From an uncultured Flammeovirgaceae bacterium (GTDB lineage Bacteria; Bacteroidota; Bacteroidia; Cytophagales; Cyclobacteriaceae): a stretch of 64,000 bases of DNA. The stretch lies in NCBI GenBank assembly GCA_937883755.1, contig CAKZYA010000006.1:62001-126000 (forward strand), written 5' to 3'. Below are positions 26,683 to 33,800 of this stretch, one piece after another. The translations under genes and the position numbers were made by a program. The number at the start of each line of letters is the position of its first letter. Within the stretch, counting starts at the first letter, position 1. The notes beneath the pieces were generated by a model. The model did not search any database and was not told where the DNA came from. It saw only the letters and a list, made by a program, of their open reading frames with translations.

Positions 26683-26822
26683 CCAAGCATTTTTCAGTGT
26701 AATTTCCAACTTAATATGCCAGATGTAATTTAGCTACTCAAATTCAGTATTAAGAATCTCATTAAGGCTATACTTTTGGTTGAGTGTTTATAACTAATAA
26801 TACGGTCTAAAACATAAGATTC

Positions 26823-28343
26823 ATGACATTCGCCCAGATACTGAATGCGGGTATCCGAGATGATCAGCCTTCTCACTTACAAAAAAAAATAAGGATTGCC
26901 AACAGCGTAGCGCTCATTGTTAGCTTTGGGGTAGCCCTGCCCTTCATAATCGTTTCGCTGATTCATTTTCCTCCTGTAGCAATTCTTCCTAGTATTGGTT
27001 TCTTTGTTTGCCTAGGTTCTATAGGAGCAAATGCATTAGGAGCTCCAGTGACTGGAAGGGGAATTATTTCACTGTTACCGGTTACACTAACGGCTCTCTT
27101 TCATGTTGGCTTGGCAGCTGCTGGCGAACCACCGATATTTGGAGTGTACTTAATAGCATTAAGTTTTTCTAGTGTTGTGTTTTTGGTGTTTGACTTGCGG
27201 GAAAAAACCTATTTATTTTCTATCGCTGGTATTATAGCACTCATTTTTATCTCATTCCCCTACACCCAACATTGGTGGGAGCCTGTGATCGATGATACAA
27301 TCATCCGAGAGGGGTACGTGAGCATTGTTGCTATTCTTACCAGTCTTACTTTTGCTTTTGGTAGCGTTCTTACATTGGTAACTCAAAACCAATTATCCGA
27401 AAAAAAAACTGCCCAATTACTTGCTGAAGCAAATGAAATCAATGAAAAAGCTAAAGAGTCAGAGCAAGAACTAAAGGAAAGCCTGAAGCAGTTAGAAGAA
27501 GCCCAAGAGGAAGAGAAACGGCGACAGTGGGTAGCTGAAGGGCTAGCCCAAACGGTAAGCATACTTCGTGAGAATGATGATCTACAAAGTATGAGCGACC
27601 GAATTATTAGCCATATCATTCGCTATATCAATGCCAATCAGGGGGGGCTGTTTATCGTCGATGAACAAGGTGGCAATGAGTGCCTTCGTCTTCAAGCTTG
27701 TTATGCCTACGGGCGCAAAAAATTTAGAAAAAAGACAATAGCTATCGGAGAAGGGCTACTGGGGCAGACGTATCTAGAGAAAGAATACAACTACCTCACT
27801 GACATTCCTCAGGACTACGTTGATATTACTTCCGGCTTGGGTAAGGCCACTCCTCGTGCTTTACTGATTATACCCCTTATGATTAATGAAGAAGTTGAAG
27901 GAGTGTTGGAGTTAGCTTCTTTACAAGAGCTTAAGCCGCATGAGATTGAGTTCGTTCAAACATTAGGCGAAAACATTGCCGCTACGCTGCGGAATGGTCG
28001 GATAAGTACCGAAACTAAAATGCTGTTGGAAGAGTCGCAGCAGCAGACTGAAGAGATGCGGGCACAGGAAGAAGAGATGCGCCAGAACATGGAAGAACTA
28101 CAAGCTACTCAGGAACAATCGGAACGCTTAAGGGCTGAGCTAGAAGAAAATGAAAACTTATTAAAAGAAAAGCTTCAAGAACTAGAAGATGCTCAGCGGG
28201 AAACCGAGGAAGTGCGCCGGGTTGAGAAACAACGTGCTGATGAGCAAATCAAGTCCAGAAATAAGATGATGGAAAAGGCCATGCAAAAATTTAAGGAAAG
28301 AGAACAAGAATTGATGGCTCAGCTAGAAGCTGCCAAAGAATAA
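26823..28343 (+). CDS. membrane-anchored GAF-domain sensor with flanking coiled coils and no recognisable output domain
   Basis: About 6 TM, coiled coil, GAF-like region (VSILRENDDLQSMSDRIISHIIRYINANQGGLFIV...GVLELASLQELKPHEIEFVQTLGENIAATLRNGR), long C-terminal Glu/Gln coiled coil. Confidence 0.85.
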   Translation: MTFAQILNAGIRDDQPSHLQKKIRIANSVALIVSFGVALPFIIVSLIHFPPVAILPSIGFFVCLGSIGANALGAPVTGRGIISLLPVTLTALFHVGLAAAGEPPIFGVYLIALSFSSVVFLVFDLREKTYLFSIAGIIALIFISFPYTQHWWEPVIDDTIIREGYVSIVAILTSLTFAFGSVLTLVTQNQLSEKKTAQLLAEANEINEKAKESEQELKESLKQLEEAQEEEKRRQWVAEGLAQTVSILRENDDLQSMSDRIISHIIRYINANQGGLFIVDEQGGNECLRLQACYAYGRKKFRKKTIAIGEGLLGQTYLEKEYNYLTDIPQDYVDITSGLGKATPRALLIIPLMINEEVEGVLELASLQELKPHEIEFVQTLGENIAATLRNGRISTETKMLLEESQQQTEEMRAQEEEMRQNMEELQATQEQSERLRAELEENENLLKEKLQELEDAQRETEEVRRVEKQRADEQIKSRNKMMEKAMQKFKEREQELMAQLEAAKE

Positions 28344-28377
28344 ATCGTTTACCCATTTATTAAAGATAAAATGCCCT

Positions 28378-28797
28378 ATGGAAAATATTAGCGAAAGTTT
28401 TTTTGAAGCAGAGTATGATCAATCTATCAACACTATTGTAGTACGATGGCTTACTTCGCCCTCATCTCAAGAATTCAGAATAGGTATGAATCATATTATT
28501 ACTCTTTTACGAGAGCATCCAACTGGTACGCTGCTAACGGACACTACTAATTTGGGTGCAATTGATGAAGATGACCAAATATGGTCTTATACCGAATGGC
28601 TAGAGCAGGCGGTGGTTAACGGATACGATACCCTCGTACTTGTTATGTCTCCTGATATCTTTGCCCAAATGTCGGTGGAAGATATTATGACTCAAGCCAA
28701 TGCGGCTACAAAAGGTCGAATAGTTAATCAGTACTTTGATAACGAACAGGATGCCAAAGCGTGGATAAAGCAACGATCCGAAACGGTTAGTCAATAG
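28378..28797 (+). CDS. SpoIIAA/STAS-like small protein, paralog 1
   Basis: MSPDIFAQMSVEDIMTQ...YFDNEQDAKAWIK shared with the next two ORFs. Confidence 0.75.
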   Translation: MENISESFFEAEYDQSINTIVVRWLTSPSSQEFRIGMNHIITLLREHPTGTLLTDTTNLGAIDEDDQIWSYTEWLEQAVVNGYDTLVLVMSPDIFAQMSVEDIMTQANAATKGRIVNQYFDNEQDAKAWIKQRSETVSQ

Positions 28798-28968
28798 AGA
28801 CAGAAACATACAATTGCTAATCAGTAAGGTGACCTCGTATCTAGGCTGGTGAACTGAAGTTAACCAAAGCGAGAGCTACTAAGGCTTATCAGCCCAAAGA
28901 AACTACACTTCAAGTAGCATTACAGCAAAAAGAAGAATTAAACCGTCTTGTAAAATCCCAAAATTAAT

Positions 28969-29364
28969 ATGACTATGGTATCTTTTGATGAAAAGTTCTT
29001 ACAAATTTATTACGATGAAACGGTGCCTTGTGTCACCATGCAGTGGAAAGACTTTGCTACCAGTGAAGAGTTTAAGATCGGTCTAAATAAGGGCTTAGAC
29101 TTGCTTATGGAGCAAAATACAGAAAACTGGTTGGCAGATTTACGAAAGATGGATGTGATTGATCCAGACGATGAAAAATGGAGCAACGAAGATTGGTTTC
29201 CAAGAGCTTTGGCGGGTGGAGTAAAGAAGATGGCGCTCATCCCATCTGAAGATATATTTAACAATATGTCGGTAGAGAGTATTATGAACGAAGTGGCAGG
29301 AACAGGCTTGGTAGTTCATTACTTTGATAATGTAGAAGAAGCGAAAACGTGGTTGAAGTCATAA
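28969..29364 (+). CDS. SpoIIAA/STAS-like small protein, paralog 2
   Basis: SEDIFNNMSVESIMNE...YFDNVEEAKTWLKS. Confidence 0.75.
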   Translation: MTMVSFDEKFLQIYYDETVPCVTMQWKDFATSEEFKIGLNKGLDLLMEQNTENWLADLRKMDVIDPDDEKWSNEDWFPRALAGGVKKMALIPSEDIFNNMSVESIMNEVAGTGLVVHYFDNVEEAKTWLKS

Positions 29365-29396
29365 ACTTTTTATTAATCATTTAAATAAATCTATGT

Positions 29397-29804
29397 ATGG
29401 AAGTAACAGTAATTTCGGTGAAGAATGCTTTAGGGGAAGACATTCTTCAAATCGAGCACGATGAAGCTCGTGATTGGCTTTACACTCGTTGGATAGGTGA
29501 TGTAACCGTTGAGGATGTTAAAGCAGGGGGAGAAAAGATGCTAGAGCAAATTCAAGAAAAATCTTGCCAAAAGGTACTAAACGATAATCGTGATGTTACT
29601 GGCTCTTGGGATGATGCAAATGAGTGGATCACTCAGAATTGGATGCCTCGGATTGTCAGTGCTGGTTTGCAGAAATTTGCTCATATTATATCGCCAGATA
29701 TTTTTGCTGCTATGTCAGTGGAGGAAATGATGACTCAAGTAAGTGGCTTTGAGATGCATATTTTTGAAGATGAAGAGAAAGCGAAAGTCTGGTTGAGGTC
29801 GTAA
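29397..29804 (+). CDS. SpoIIAA/STAS-like small protein, paralog 3
   Basis: ISPDIFAAMSVEEMMTQ...IFEDEEKAKVWLRS. Confidence 0.75.
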   Translation: MEVTVISVKNALGEDILQIEHDEARDWLYTRWIGDVTVEDVKAGGEKMLEQIQEKSCQKVLNDNRDVTGSWDDANEWITQNWMPRIVSAGLQKFAHIISPDIFAAMSVEEMMTQVSGFEMHIFEDEEKAKVWLRS

Positions 29805-29830
29805 TCAATTCGGTCTTACCGTAGAATACT

Positions 29831-29853
29831 AAAGGCGCCAATGGCGCCTTTTT
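29831..29853 (+). terminator. intrinsic terminator closing the GAF/SpoIIAA-like locus
   Basis: AAAGGCGCC-AAT-GGCGCCTTTTT, perfect hairpin plus T-run. Confidence 0.85.
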
Positions 29854-29951
29854 GCGTCGAGGCCTATTATCTACTCAACTATCTTTCAAGAGTAGTTTTT
29901 TCAATCTGCAGATAAATAGATAACTTATACAGTCGTCTTAGCTGTAATCTC

Positions 29952-32900
29952 ATGCGTTATCTACCTCTCTACCTTGCTTTATTATTCTTCCTAGTAGCTA
30001 TTGTAAACAGTTGTACTCATCAGTCTTCGGACAACCAAGCAGCCGTTAAATCTGAAGATCAAGCCCTTTCGATTCAACAAAGCGATACCACAATTTCAGT
30101 ATTTCGAGCTAATCAGAATCAGCCTATTCTAACCCAACTGGCTAAAGCCGATTTTCGTCCTTATTTGCATCCCATCATCGCGCCCGACGGAAAAGGGGAG
30201 CTCACCGAGTACAGCCCTGGTCACCACAAACACCAGACTGGACTTTATTGGGGTTTTACCCGAGTAAATGGTCGAGACTATTTTCATCACCCTGAAGGGG
30301 GTTACTGGCAGAAAGTCTCGGCTTCGGTTATTCAATCCGAGGGGGAAACAGTAGAGTGGCAAACAGTCTACAACCTGCTGGACTCAACTGGTAGTGCGGT
30401 GCTGACCGAAACCCAGAACTGGACAATACAACTGGATTCGGGAAAGTATATTCTAGATTTAGAATGGCGAGGCGAAGCCCAGACGAACGTCACTATTGGC
30501 GAATATGATTACGGTGGACTGTTCCTGCGAATGCCCTGGTACGAAGGTATTCCCGGTGAAGTAGTGAACGCCGCTCGCCAGCGTGACGAGAAAGCCGAAG
30601 GTCAACGAGCCATGTGGGTAGATGTTGGCATGCAGGTAGAAGGTCGTGGCGATCTGGCACATATCACCATCTTCGATCATCCAGATAATGCCGGATTTCC
30701 CCAGCCTTGGCGAGTAGACGGTCAGCTAGGTATTGGTCCGGTAAGGGCACGATTAGGGGATTGGACGATTGCTGAAGGGGAAACCGAAGTAATCCGTCAT
30801 CGGCTCGTCGTGTATACTGGCGATCTGGATGATGTGGAAATGAAAGCAGCTTGGGAAGAATATACTGGGGAAGGAGCTATGTATTCTACCGCTGCTCTCT
30901 GGAAAATTGCTCAGCAGGAAGCCCGCGAAGCTAAGTTCCTAACTCCCGAAGCAGCCGTAGAGTCTATGACCGTAATGGATGGCTATCAGGTAAATGCTTG
31001 GGCCGCCGAACCCATGCTTACTCAGCCTATGGCATTCTGCTGGGATGATCGTGGTCGACTGTGGGTTGCTGAAAATCTGGATTATGAATCGCGAGGGCAT
31101 GGCTTTTCTAACGATGGCAATAGCCGAATTCTAATTCTGGAAGATACTGACCGGGACGGAGAGGCAGATAGCCGGAAAGTTTTTCTGGAAGGTATTCCCT
31201 TCCCGGCAGCGATTGCAGTGGGCATGGGCGGATTATTTCTGGGTGCCCCGCCCAATTTGTTGTTTGTACCTGATCGTGATGGCGATGATAAAGCCGATGA
31301 AGACGATATTGAAATCCGGCTGACGGGTTGGGGCATTCGTGACCGTCACGAAACGCTAAACAGTTTGCATTGGGGGCCAGACGGATGGCTCTACGGCTGT
31401 CAAGGCTTTGCCACTCCTTCCAAAGTAGGTAAACCAGACAAAAATGCGCGTATTTATCGGGCTAATGAATCTTTTCCAGAAGATATTCTGGAAGGCAATG
31501 GAGTAGATTTTAATGGTGGAGTTTGGCGCTATCACCCTACTAAAGATCGCTTTGAAGTAGTAGCCCATGGCTTTAGTAATCCCTGGGGGATTGACTACGA
31601 TGCGAAGGGGCAACTATTCATCAGTGCTTGCGTGATTCCACATATGTGGCACGTCATTCCTGGGGGTATTTACCACCGGCAGGGCGGACAGCACTTCAAC
31701 CCCTATGTTTACGAAGACATTAAAACCATTGCTGACCATCGGCACCGTTCGGCTCACGGTGGGGCTAGAATTTATCAGTCCGATGCATTTCCAGCGGAGC
31801 AGCGTGGGCGAATTTTCATGGCTAACATTCACGAACATGCGGTACTTACCGATGTACTAGAGCCAAAGGGCTCGGGCTTTGTAGCTCACCATGGTGACGA
31901 GTTTATGATGGCTAATAATGCTCAATGGGTAGGTTTTAGTATGGAAATTGGCCCGGATGGTGGAGTGTATGTACTCGATTGGCATGATGCCGATATTTGC
32001 GGTAAGGAAGTACTACACAAAGAGACCGGACGCATTTTCCGTATTACCGCTAAAGAATCACTAGCCGAAGATTGGGAAGGAAGGTACTCCGATCTGAACC
32101 AAATGAGCGATCAGCAACTAATCGAATTACAAACCAGCCCTAGTGACTGGCACGCCCGTCGGGCTCGGGTTATTTTACAGCACCGGGCAGCGGAGGGTAA
32201 ATTGAAAAATGACACTCATCGGCAGTTACGCCAAATCTACCAATCAGCTTCTAATGTTGACTATCGGCTAAGAGCGATGTGGTCGTTGCATGTAACCCAA
32301 GGCTTTTCGGTTAAACAACTTCAGAAAGCTTTGTCCGATGAAGATCAGTACGTTCGGGCTTGGGCTATTCAGCTTTTGTGTGAAGACCAATCTCCTTCGC
32401 CTTCTGTTCTCAAGCAGTTCACTAAAATGGCAGCGAATGATTCCTCTCCGGTGGTACGGTTATATTTGGCCACCGCTTTACAGCGTATCAATCCTGAGGC
32501 TCGTTGGGATGTTGCGCAAGCACTAATGACGCACAGAGAAGATGCCGACGATCATAATTTGCCCAAGATGATTTGGTATGGCTTTGAATCGTTAGTGGAA
32601 GATGATCCTGAGCGAGCATTAACTGTTGCTTCCGAAAGTCGTATTCCGATGCTGGCGGAGTTCACCGCTCGCCGGACTATTGATGCTGATGTTCCCGATA
32701 TGCTCGTAGACCAACTGGGAAAGAATCCAGCTACTCTAATCAGTATGCTGGAGGGTACTCGCGATGGTCTGGAGGGACGATCCGATCTGACTGCTCCAAA
32801 AAATTGGTCAGCTACTTACGCGAAATTGAAGCAAGCGAAGAGTAAAGAAGTGAACCAGTTAGCCCTGGAAATAGCTCAGCAGCTTGGTGACACTGAAGCT

Positions 32901-33800
32901 GCTCAGCAGTATCTGGCTACGCTAAAAAATCAGCGAGTACCCATAGAACAGCGCAGAAAAGCCTTGCAAAATCTGGCCGATCAACAGCGAAACGAGTTAC
33001 TAGCAGAACTGCCAAGCTTATTAAATGATAAAAATTTGCGTACTGAAGCCATCCGAGCCGTAGCTGTATTTGACGAAGAATCACTCGGTGAACAGCTGCT
33101 TAGTCAATATGCTTCGCTAAATACCAATGATAAACTGGAAGCGGTACAGGCGTTAGCTTCTCGTCCCAAATATGGGTGGATGCTGGCTCAAGCAATCAAA
33201 AGTGAAGAGATACCCAAACGAGATGTTCCGGCTTATGTAGCTCGGCAATTGCGGCGGGTAGTAGGCAGCGGTTTCGTAGAGATTTGGGGACCGATTGATG
33301 AACTTAGTGGTGATTTAAGCGCATCTTACGCCAAATACCGAAGCCTGCTTACCGAAACGGCCTTAGCTACGGCTAATCCGGTACACGGCCGCACCCTATT
33401 CACCCGAACCTGCGGGCCCTGCCACCAAATGTACAGTGAAGGGGGAAATGTGGGGCCGGATATTACCGGGGCAAATCGTCAGAACGTAGAATACATTCTC
33501 AGTAACGTGCTGGAACCCAGCAGCGAGATTCAGGATGATTATAAAATGACGATAGTAACTACTCGCAGCGGGCGTACCTACGCGGGTAATATCACTACTG
33601 AGAATGATCGCCAACTTACCTTGCGAGTAGTTGGACAAGAAGCCGTCGTAATCAATAAATCAGAAATACAGTCGCAGGAGGAATCGCCTAACTCTATGAT
33701 GCCAGCCGGATTGTTCAATATACTTTCGGATGAAGAAGTACTAGATCTAATGGCTTATCTGCGCACTGATCAGCAAGTAACTTCGCTAGAAAGCGATTAG
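29952..33800 (+). CDS. lipoprotein: DUF6807 (PmoA-like) + PVC-type heme/dehydrogenase beta-propeller + HEAT-like repeats + C-terminal cytochrome c
   Basis: Lipobox-like VNSCTHQ; SPGHHKHQTGLYWGFTRVNGRDYFHH; GYQVNAWAAEPMLTQPMAFCWDDRGRLWVAEN; RTCGPCHQMYSEGGNVGPDITGANR. Confidence 0.88.
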   Translation: MRYLPLYLALLFFLVAIVNSCTHQSSDNQAAVKSEDQALSIQQSDTTISVFRANQNQPILTQLAKADFRPYLHPIIAPDGKGELTEYSPGHHKHQTGLYWGFTRVNGRDYFHHPEGGYWQKVSASVIQSEGETVEWQTVYNLLDSTGSAVLTETQNWTIQLDSGKYILDLEWRGEAQTNVTIGEYDYGGLFLRMPWYEGIPGEVVNAARQRDEKAEGQRAMWVDVGMQVEGRGDLAHITIFDHPDNAGFPQPWRVDGQLGIGPVRARLGDWTIAEGETEVIRHRLVVYTGDLDDVEMKAAWEEYTGEGAMYSTAALWKIAQQEAREAKFLTPEAAVESMTVMDGYQVNAWAAEPMLTQPMAFCWDDRGRLWVAENLDYESRGHGFSNDGNSRILILEDTDRDGEADSRKVFLEGIPFPAAIAVGMGGLFLGAPPNLLFVPDRDGDDKADEDDIEIRLTGWGIRDRHETLNSLHWGPDGWLYGCQGFATPSKVGKPDKNARIYRANESFPEDILEGNGVDFNGGVWRYHPTKDRFEVVAHGFSNPWGIDYDAKGQLFISACVIPHMWHVIPGGIYHRQGGQHFNPYVYEDIKTIADHRHRSAHGGARIYQSDAFPAEQRGRIFMANIHEHAVLTDVLEPKGSGFVAHHGDEFMMANNAQWVGFSMEIGPDGGVYVLDWHDADICGKEVLHKETGRIFRITAKESLAEDWEGRYSDLNQMSDQQLIELQTSPSDWHARRARVILQHRAAEGKLKNDTHRQLRQIYQSASNVDYRLRAMWSLHVTQGFSVKQLQKALSDEDQYVRAWAIQLLCEDQSPSPSVLKQFTKMAANDSSPVVRLYLATALQRINPEARWDVAQALMTHREDADDHNLPKMIWYGFESLVEDDPERALTVASESRIPMLAEFTARRTIDADVPDMLVDQLGKNPATLISMLEGTRDGLEGRSDLTAPKNWSATYAKLKQAKSKEVNQLALEIAQQLGDTEAAQQYLATLKNQRVPIEQRRKALQNLADQQRNELLAELPSLLNDKNLRTEAIRAVAVFDEESLGEQLLSQYASLNTNDKLEAVQALASRPKYGWMLAQAIKSEEIPKRDVPAYVARQLRRVVGSGFVEIWGPIDELSGDLSASYAKYRSLLTETALATANPVHGRTLFTRTCGPCHQMYSEGGNVGPDITGANRQNVEYILSNVLEPSSEIQDDYKMTIVTTRSGRTYAGNITTENDRQLTLRVVGQEAVVINKSEIQSQEESPNSMMPAGLFNILSDEEVLDLMAYLRTDQQVTSLESD

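What the first reader, a model, noticed from the sequence alone, without database searches (positions are those of the whole stretch)
26823..29853. Candidate new signalling locus: membrane GAF/coiled-coil sensor plus three tandem SpoIIAA/STAS-like paralogs
The sensor has a TM region, GAF domain and long coiled coil, but no kinase, cyclase or methyl-acceptor output I can recognise. It is followed same-strand by three ~135-aa proteins sharing [SPDIFAxMSVEDIMTQ]...[xFDNEEDAKAWLKS] at their C-termini but divergent N-termini, and the locus ends in a strong terminator (29831-29853). Tandem duplication with divergence suggests paralogs reading different states of one sensor, or a partner-switch module without the usual anti-sigma kinase. 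SpoIIAA-like/SEC14-type STAS proteins of unknown function are known; this combination is not one I recognise.
Basis: partly seen in the sequence, partly recalled or inferred. Interest (0 to 1): 0.72.

Follow-up and report, generated by a model that had tools for sequence, protein, structure and literature searches.

The report
Membrane sensor with STAS docking tail
This is a small signalling locus of Cytophagales bacteria in which a membrane sensor without an enzyme of its own ends in a conserved coiled-coil tail that repeatedly sits next to genes for STAS-like adaptor proteins, and in related bacteria the same kind of membrane sensor and STAS domain are fused to a histidine kinase.

Summary
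In detail: a membrane/GAF/coiled-coil protein (26823-28343) is followed by three SpoIIAA-like/STAS proteins and a terminator. Linkage is conserved within the genus and in several other Cytophagales families. The specific signal is a C-terminal coiled-coil tail of about 47 residues. A search with the tail alone found 22 new C-terminal tails in 292 genomes; 8 are followed directly by a STAS gene. Among 24 close GAF/coiled-coil relatives without the tail, none is. In the same family the same membrane domain is fused in one chain to a histidine kinase and a C-terminal STAS domain, and in two other loci the order is tail sensor, STAS, histidine kinase. I read the locus as a split receptor: the tail docks a STAS adaptor, which passes the sensor state to a histidine kinase encoded elsewhere. 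Docking and output are inferred. Canonical partner switching is unlikely: no serine/threonine is conserved at the expected phospho-site. New variant of a known kind.

The parts
26771..26778 (+). Bacteroidetes-type -7 element (TAnnTTTG), the only one in an intergenic stretch of the unit; no TTG at the usual -33 spacing
   Evidence: weak, 27 such octamers on the + strand of the window
26823..28343 (+). Membrane sensor: N-terminal transmembrane region (about six helices), coiled coil, GAF domain (residues 252-389), coiled coil, C-terminal tail
28200..28340 (+). C-terminal 47-aa coiled-coil tail (ETEEVRRVEKQRADEQIKSRNKMMEKAMQKFKEREQELMAQLEAAKE), candidate STAS docking tail
28378..28797 (+). w1, SpoIIAA-like/STAS adaptor of the clade that is regularly linked to tail sensors
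28848..28967 (+). Remnant (39 codons plus stop) of the C-terminus of a second tail sensor, directly before w2
   Evidence: local score 75 against the G003 second-locus sensor tail, 0 of 5000 shuffles reach it (maximum 57)
28969..29364 (+). w2, SpoIIAA-like/STAS protein; orthologs in G001 and, behind its own sensor, in G003
29397..29804 (+). w3, SpoIIAA-like/STAS protein of a clade otherwise mostly found as solo genes
29829..29854 (+). Intrinsic terminator hairpin closing the unit

Best explanation
A split receptor. The membrane region and GAF domain sense a signal (unknown) and change the packing of the long coiled coil. The last ~47 residues form a docking tail that holds a separate STAS-fold (SpoIIAA-like) protein, w1 first of all. 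The STAS protein takes the place of the covalently attached STAS domain in RsbR/YtvA-type sensors and of the STAS domain that in cousins is fused to a histidine kinase. It would relay the sensor state, by binding rather than by serine phosphorylation, to a histidine kinase encoded elsewhere in the genome. w2 and w3 are further adaptors of older, separate lineages that were brought in with, or next to, such cassettes. Shown: genes, domains, STAS fold (model), tail-STAS linkage, kinase fusions with the homologous membrane domain, cassette assembly. Inferred: physical docking, direction of signalling, kinase output, signal.
For: Tail: shared by STAS-linked sensors even where a PAS domain separates it from GAF (L067, L084), and absent from most unlinked relatives, whose match stops near residue 455. 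Blind test: the tail profile found 22 new C-terminal tails in 292 order genomes; 8 are followed directly on the same strand by a STAS gene (G138, G189, G227, G190 twice, G145, G240, G176), and a ninth (G044) has a convergent STAS gene 89 nt away; 0 of 24 tail-less close relatives have one within the 1.5-kb flanks. Tail and adjacent STAS co-diverge, also after allowing for GAF divergence (14 pairs, partial r 0.37, p 0.006). Fusion: 6TM-coiled coil-HisKA-HATPase-SpoIIAA-like chains, with the membrane domain homologous to the window's (E 7e-16 to 3e-14; hhalign E 1e-15), about 55 hits in long open frames in the family, architecture confirmed in six. Operons tail sensor-STAS-histidine kinase in G190 and G240. 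STAS fold: pLDDT 95, best PDB matches SpoIIAA, RsbV, RsbS, TM1081. Same genome: two DUF7793 STAS-like genes directly precede a PAS-histidine kinase.
Against: No kinase lies next to the window unit. 14 of 24 C-terminal tails have no adjacent same-strand STAS gene, so the tail may have other partners or may be a generic coiled-coil end. The tail has the lowest confidence in the model (pLDDT 53-65) and no complex could be predicted. In G001 a sensor without the tail still lies near a w2-type gene. Some linked loci come from one genus (G138, G189, G227), so independent events are fewer than the count. The HK-fused STAS domains form their own clade, apart from w1.
Confidence: 0.5

Rival explanations
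1. Lipid/ligand carriers: like the Shewanella SpoIIAA-like proteins, w1-w3 bind a non-polar molecule or the membrane surface and present it to, or report it for, the membrane sensor; the STAS fold is a binding module, not a relay.
For: The Shewanella SpoIIAA-like proteins have a deep non-polar cavity and open/closed helices alpha2/alpha3 (PMC2954212); one of them, 2ook, is among the fold matches; conserved W69 and W74 lie on helix alpha2.
Against: 2ook is not the best match (signalling STAS proteins rank higher); it does not explain the tail linkage or the fusion to histidine kinases. It does not exclude a relay role either.
Confidence: 0.18
2. Canonical partner switching: w1-w3 are anti-anti-sigma factors switched by Ser/Thr phosphorylation through an RsbW-like kinase and a SpoIIE-like phosphatase elsewhere in the genome.
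For: The genome holds two HATPase_c_2 genes of RsbW size (C49, C4) and five SpoIIE-type phosphatase hits; on C4 the two kinds are adjacent; the fold is that of SpoIIAA/RsbV; one SpoIIAA-like gene of the genome lies beside an ECF sigma factor gene (L186).
Against: No conserved Ser/Thr around the start of helix alpha2 (at most 13 of 55 at any of positions 62-66); no PF01740 match; no RsbW-like kinase or phosphatase next to this unit.
Confidence: 0.1
3. One reading: three duplicated paralogs compete for one sensor and read different states of it.
For: Three paralogs do lie behind one sensor here and in G002.
Against: They are three old lineages, not local duplicates; w2 was brought in behind a second sensor's tail; in relatives w2- and w1-types each sit behind a sensor of their own. 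Competition for one tail after assembly is still possible.
Confidence: 0.12
4. Passive clustering: the genes are neighbours without working together.
For: w3-type genes are usually solo, and most SpoIIAA-like genes of these genomes are not near such sensors; tails without adjacent STAS exist.
Against: Linkage recurs across several families and was found again from the tail alone; STAS is fused to kinases with the same membrane domain.
Confidence: 0.1

Closest known systems
SpoIIAA-like family PF11964 (Shewanella YP_749275.1, PDB 2ook)
   Same: w2 and w3 pass the family cut-off, w1 is just below; same STAS/CRAL-TRIO-like fold and length
   Different: the Shewanella proteins are described as single-domain proteins of unknown function (PMC2954212); here they are tied to a tail sensor and, in cousins, fused to a histidine kinase
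RsbR / YtvA sensors of the stressosome and general stress pathway
   Same: dimeric sensor, helical linker, STAS output (PMC9237128, PMC10949197); fold match to RsbS, the Listeria stressosome and YtvA
   Different: here the STAS part is a separate protein, the sensor is membrane-bound, no RsbT/RsbS genes are linked, and the phospho-sites have no conserved counterpart
6TM-histidine kinase-SpoIIAA-like fusions of the same family (e.g. L156, L157, L158)
   Same: homologous membrane domain, long coiled coil, SpoIIAA-like domain
   Different: they carry HisKA/HATPase in the same chain and no GAF; their STAS domain forms its own clade; no description of them was found in the papers searched
SpoIIAA/RsbV anti-anti-sigma factors (PF01740)
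   Same: STAS fold
   Different: no PF01740 match, no conserved phospho-serine/threonine
DUF7793 (PF25056)
   Same: small STAS-like proteins of the same genome that also score weakly with PF11964; tandem pair before a PAS-histidine kinase (L184)
   Different: another Pfam family; w3 matches it only at E 0.06

Membership tests
SpoIIAA-like PF11964 | Pfam score above the curated cut-off of 25 bits | tested here: met
   w2 26.1, w3 27.3 bits; w1 22.4, just below, but 36% identical to w2 and placed in the same tree
SpoIIAA-like PF11964 | STAS-type alpha/beta fold | tested here: met
   AF2 pLDDT 94.9; Foldseek probability 0.97-1.0 to SpoIIAA, RsbV, RsbS, 2ook; E-values only 0.008-0.05
Canonical partner-switch antagonist (SpoIIAA/RsbV) | PF01740 STAS match | tested here: not met
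   no PF01740 match listed up to E 10
Canonical partner-switch antagonist (SpoIIAA/RsbV) | conserved phosphorylatable Ser/Thr at the start of helix alpha2 | tested here: not met
   at most 13 of 55 at positions 62-66 of w1 numbering; the site is placed from the model's secondary structure
Canonical partner-switch antagonist (SpoIIAA/RsbV) | linked anti-sigma kinase or PP2C phosphatase | tested here: not met
   no PF07228 match and no RsbW-sized PF13581 match on this contig; the genome has such genes on other contigs
Stressosome RsbR | sensor domain and STAS domain in one chain | tested here: not met
   separate genes
Stressosome RsbR | large RsbR-RsbS assembly with RsbT | not testable with these tools
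   needs purified protein
Sensor histidine kinase | HisKA/HATPase domains in the sensor | tested here: not met
   only GAF found; present in the 6TM-STAS fusions
Tail-sensor/STAS pair (as defined here) | C-terminal tail matching alignment A2 and an adjacent PF11964-like gene | tested here: met
   window is a founding member; 8 further linked loci found with the tail profile

The most novel reading that the evidence does not exclude
An unrecognised signalling class of Cytophagales: membrane GAF/PAS receptors without a catalytic domain that carry a specific C-terminal docking tail for exchangeable STAS adaptors, which transmit the signal by phosphorylation-independent binding to histidine kinases; the HK-STAS fusions are its one-chain form.
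Probability: 0.35. Interest if true: 0.75.

Novelty: new variant of a known kind. Interest (0 to 1): 0.52.

Why it matters
SpoIIAA-like proteins are numerous in Cytophagales (up to 39 hits in one genome) and I found no function assigned to them in the papers searched. A short, defined tail that predicts a STAS neighbour, plus natural histidine-kinase fusions, gives them a concrete hypothesis that one binding experiment can test, and would show how sensors without an output domain can signal.

Tried and rejected
Simple tandem duplication: rejected by the tree. Tail as a general feature of GAF/coiled-coil proteins: rejected, tail-less relatives are common and unlinked. Tail across the phylum: 1 of 396 sampled genomes, the own one, at E 1e-5, so it looks confined to the order. 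No solved structure matches w3 by sequence. Sigma-70-type promoters: no more than in shuffles; a Bacteroidetes -7 element stands before the sensor only. DNA-level match of the w1-w2 gap to the G003 tail was no better than the best shuffle; the protein-level match carries the claim. Literature: no paper in the library joins SpoIIAA-like with Bacteroidetes; PF11964 itself is nearly absent from it. A complex prediction (tail plus w1) was not possible with the tools.

Full report
Observation. The four ORFs, the GAF domain, the membrane region, the coiled coils, the three small SpoIIAA-like proteins and the terminator are all there. The sensor has no recognisable output domain. Gaps are 34 nt (sensor-w1), 171 nt (w1-w2) and 32 nt (w2-w3). 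A Bacteroidetes-type -7 element stands before the sensor and none between the genes, which fits one transcript but is weak evidence.

What the small proteins are. w2 and w3 pass the PF11964 cut-off, w1 just misses it. A model of w1 from 55 natural relatives has pLDDT 95; its best matches among solved structures are SpoIIAA, TM1081, RsbV, SpoIIAA bound to SpoIIAB, and RsbS, with the Shewanella SpoIIAA-like protein 2ook at rank 12 (E-values are modest, probabilities near 1). So they are STAS-fold proteins. At the start of helix alpha2, where SpoIIAA-type proteins carry their phosphorylated residue (established knowledge), no Ser/Thr is conserved. The most conserved positions are W24, D55, W69, F95, F120, A126 and W129.

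Conserved linkage. In the genus, G002 has sensor plus three STAS genes, G003 sensor plus one, G001 sensor plus a PAS-domain ORF and a w2 ortholog; G001 and G003 also have second sensor-STAS loci. G002's contig has the same length as the GenBank contig CAKZYJ010000315.1, an uncultured Flammeovirgaceae bacterium. Outside the genus the pair is seen in a Cesiribacteraceae genome (L067) and in G042. Among the 150 best sensor homologs in 59 genomes, 7 have one of the 150 best STAS hits within 2.5 kb downstream on the same strand, against 0.1 expected by random placement (both lists are cut at 150; 6 of the 7 are in the genus).

The tail. Linked sensors share their last ~47 residues, and most unlinked relatives do not; in L067 and L084 a PAS domain separates the GAF region from the same tail, so the tail moves as a unit. 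A search of 292 genomes of the order with the tail alone gave 24 C-terminal tails at E 4e-4 or better, 22 of them new to the model. Eight of the 22 are followed directly by a STAS gene on the same strand, among them G240 and G176, whose STAS genes are divergent. The nine best-scoring tails include eight linked ones; the ninth (G044) has a convergent STAS neighbour. Of 24 tail-less close relatives none has a STAS gene in the 1.5-kb flanks (for the longest of these proteins the flank does not reach far past the gene). Tail and neighbour STAS distances correlate (r 0.66; partial r 0.37 given GAF distance, p 0.006, 14 pairs). The other 14 tails have no adjacent same-strand STAS gene, so linkage is frequent, not obligatory. 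Nearly all genomes with a tail also hold a good STAS hit somewhere, though relatedness confounds this.

How the locus was built. In a tree of 59 STAS sequences w1, w2 and w3 sit in three separate supported groups: w1 with linked proteins of other families, w2 with its genus orthologs, w3 in a 16-row group of mostly solo genes. The 171-nt gap before w2 encodes, up to a stop codon just before the w2 start, 39 residues that align with the C-terminus of the second G003 sensor, which stands 8 nt before a w2 ortholog (score 75, best of 5000 shuffles 57). w2 therefore most likely arrived with another sensor, since deleted. In G001 the sensor has neither the tail nor an adjacent w1 (that genome is a fragmented assembly).

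Link to histidine kinases. In G018, G020 and G027 one chain holds a membrane domain, coiled coil, HisKA, HATPase_c and a C-terminal SpoIIAA-like domain. That membrane domain is homologous to the window sensor's. A search with these STAS domains in 297 genomes of the family gave about 55 hits inside frames of roughly 600-840 codons; six were opened and all have both the membrane and the STAS domain. In G190 and G240 a tail sensor is followed by STAS and then by a histidine kinase. In the window's own genome a tandem pair of DUF7793 STAS-like genes precedes a PAS-histidine kinase on C48.

Mechanism. In RsbR and YtvA a sensor drives a STAS domain through paired linker helices (PMC9237128; PMC10949197). 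I propose the same geometry in two pieces: the coiled-coil tail holds the STAS protein, whose state is read by a histidine kinase. Docking, kinase output and the signal are inferences. The genes for canonical partner switching exist in this genome on other contigs but nothing ties them to this unit.

Novelty. The parts are known folds; the tail, its link to STAS genes, and the kinase fusions were not found described in the papers searched, a limited library. I file it as a new variant of a known kind.

Noticed in passing
L186:5051-6322 (G000:C23): A SpoIIAA-like gene lies 40 nt before an ECF-type sigma factor gene on the same strand in the window's own genome.
   Followed up: partly
L184:2824-4818 (G000:C48): Two tandem DUF7793 STAS-like genes directly before a PAS-histidine kinase in the window's own genome.
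   Followed up: partly
window 29952-33800: A 1282-aa lipoprotein-like protein with a CxxCH haem motif near the C-terminus lies between the unit and a thymidylate-synthase-like gene; no ORF of that size stands at the syntenic places in G001 and G003.
   Followed up: no
L174:1576-6605 (G090:C56): A tail sensor without adjacent STAS is followed by a 7TMR-DISM/GAF/SpoIIE phosphatase gene.
   Followed up: partly
L079:5490-5885 and L082:7943-8338: A 131-aa PAS-domain ORF lies behind GAF sensors in G001 and G002, in the place where a STAS gene would stand.
   Followed up: partly
L159:1294-2301 (G056): A 335-aa protein with an internal SpoIIAA-like domain and a long acidic region.
   Followed up: no
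L166:1176-7649 (G240:C86): A 2157-aa GAF protein ends in the same tail and is followed by STAS and a histidine kinase.
   Followed up: partly
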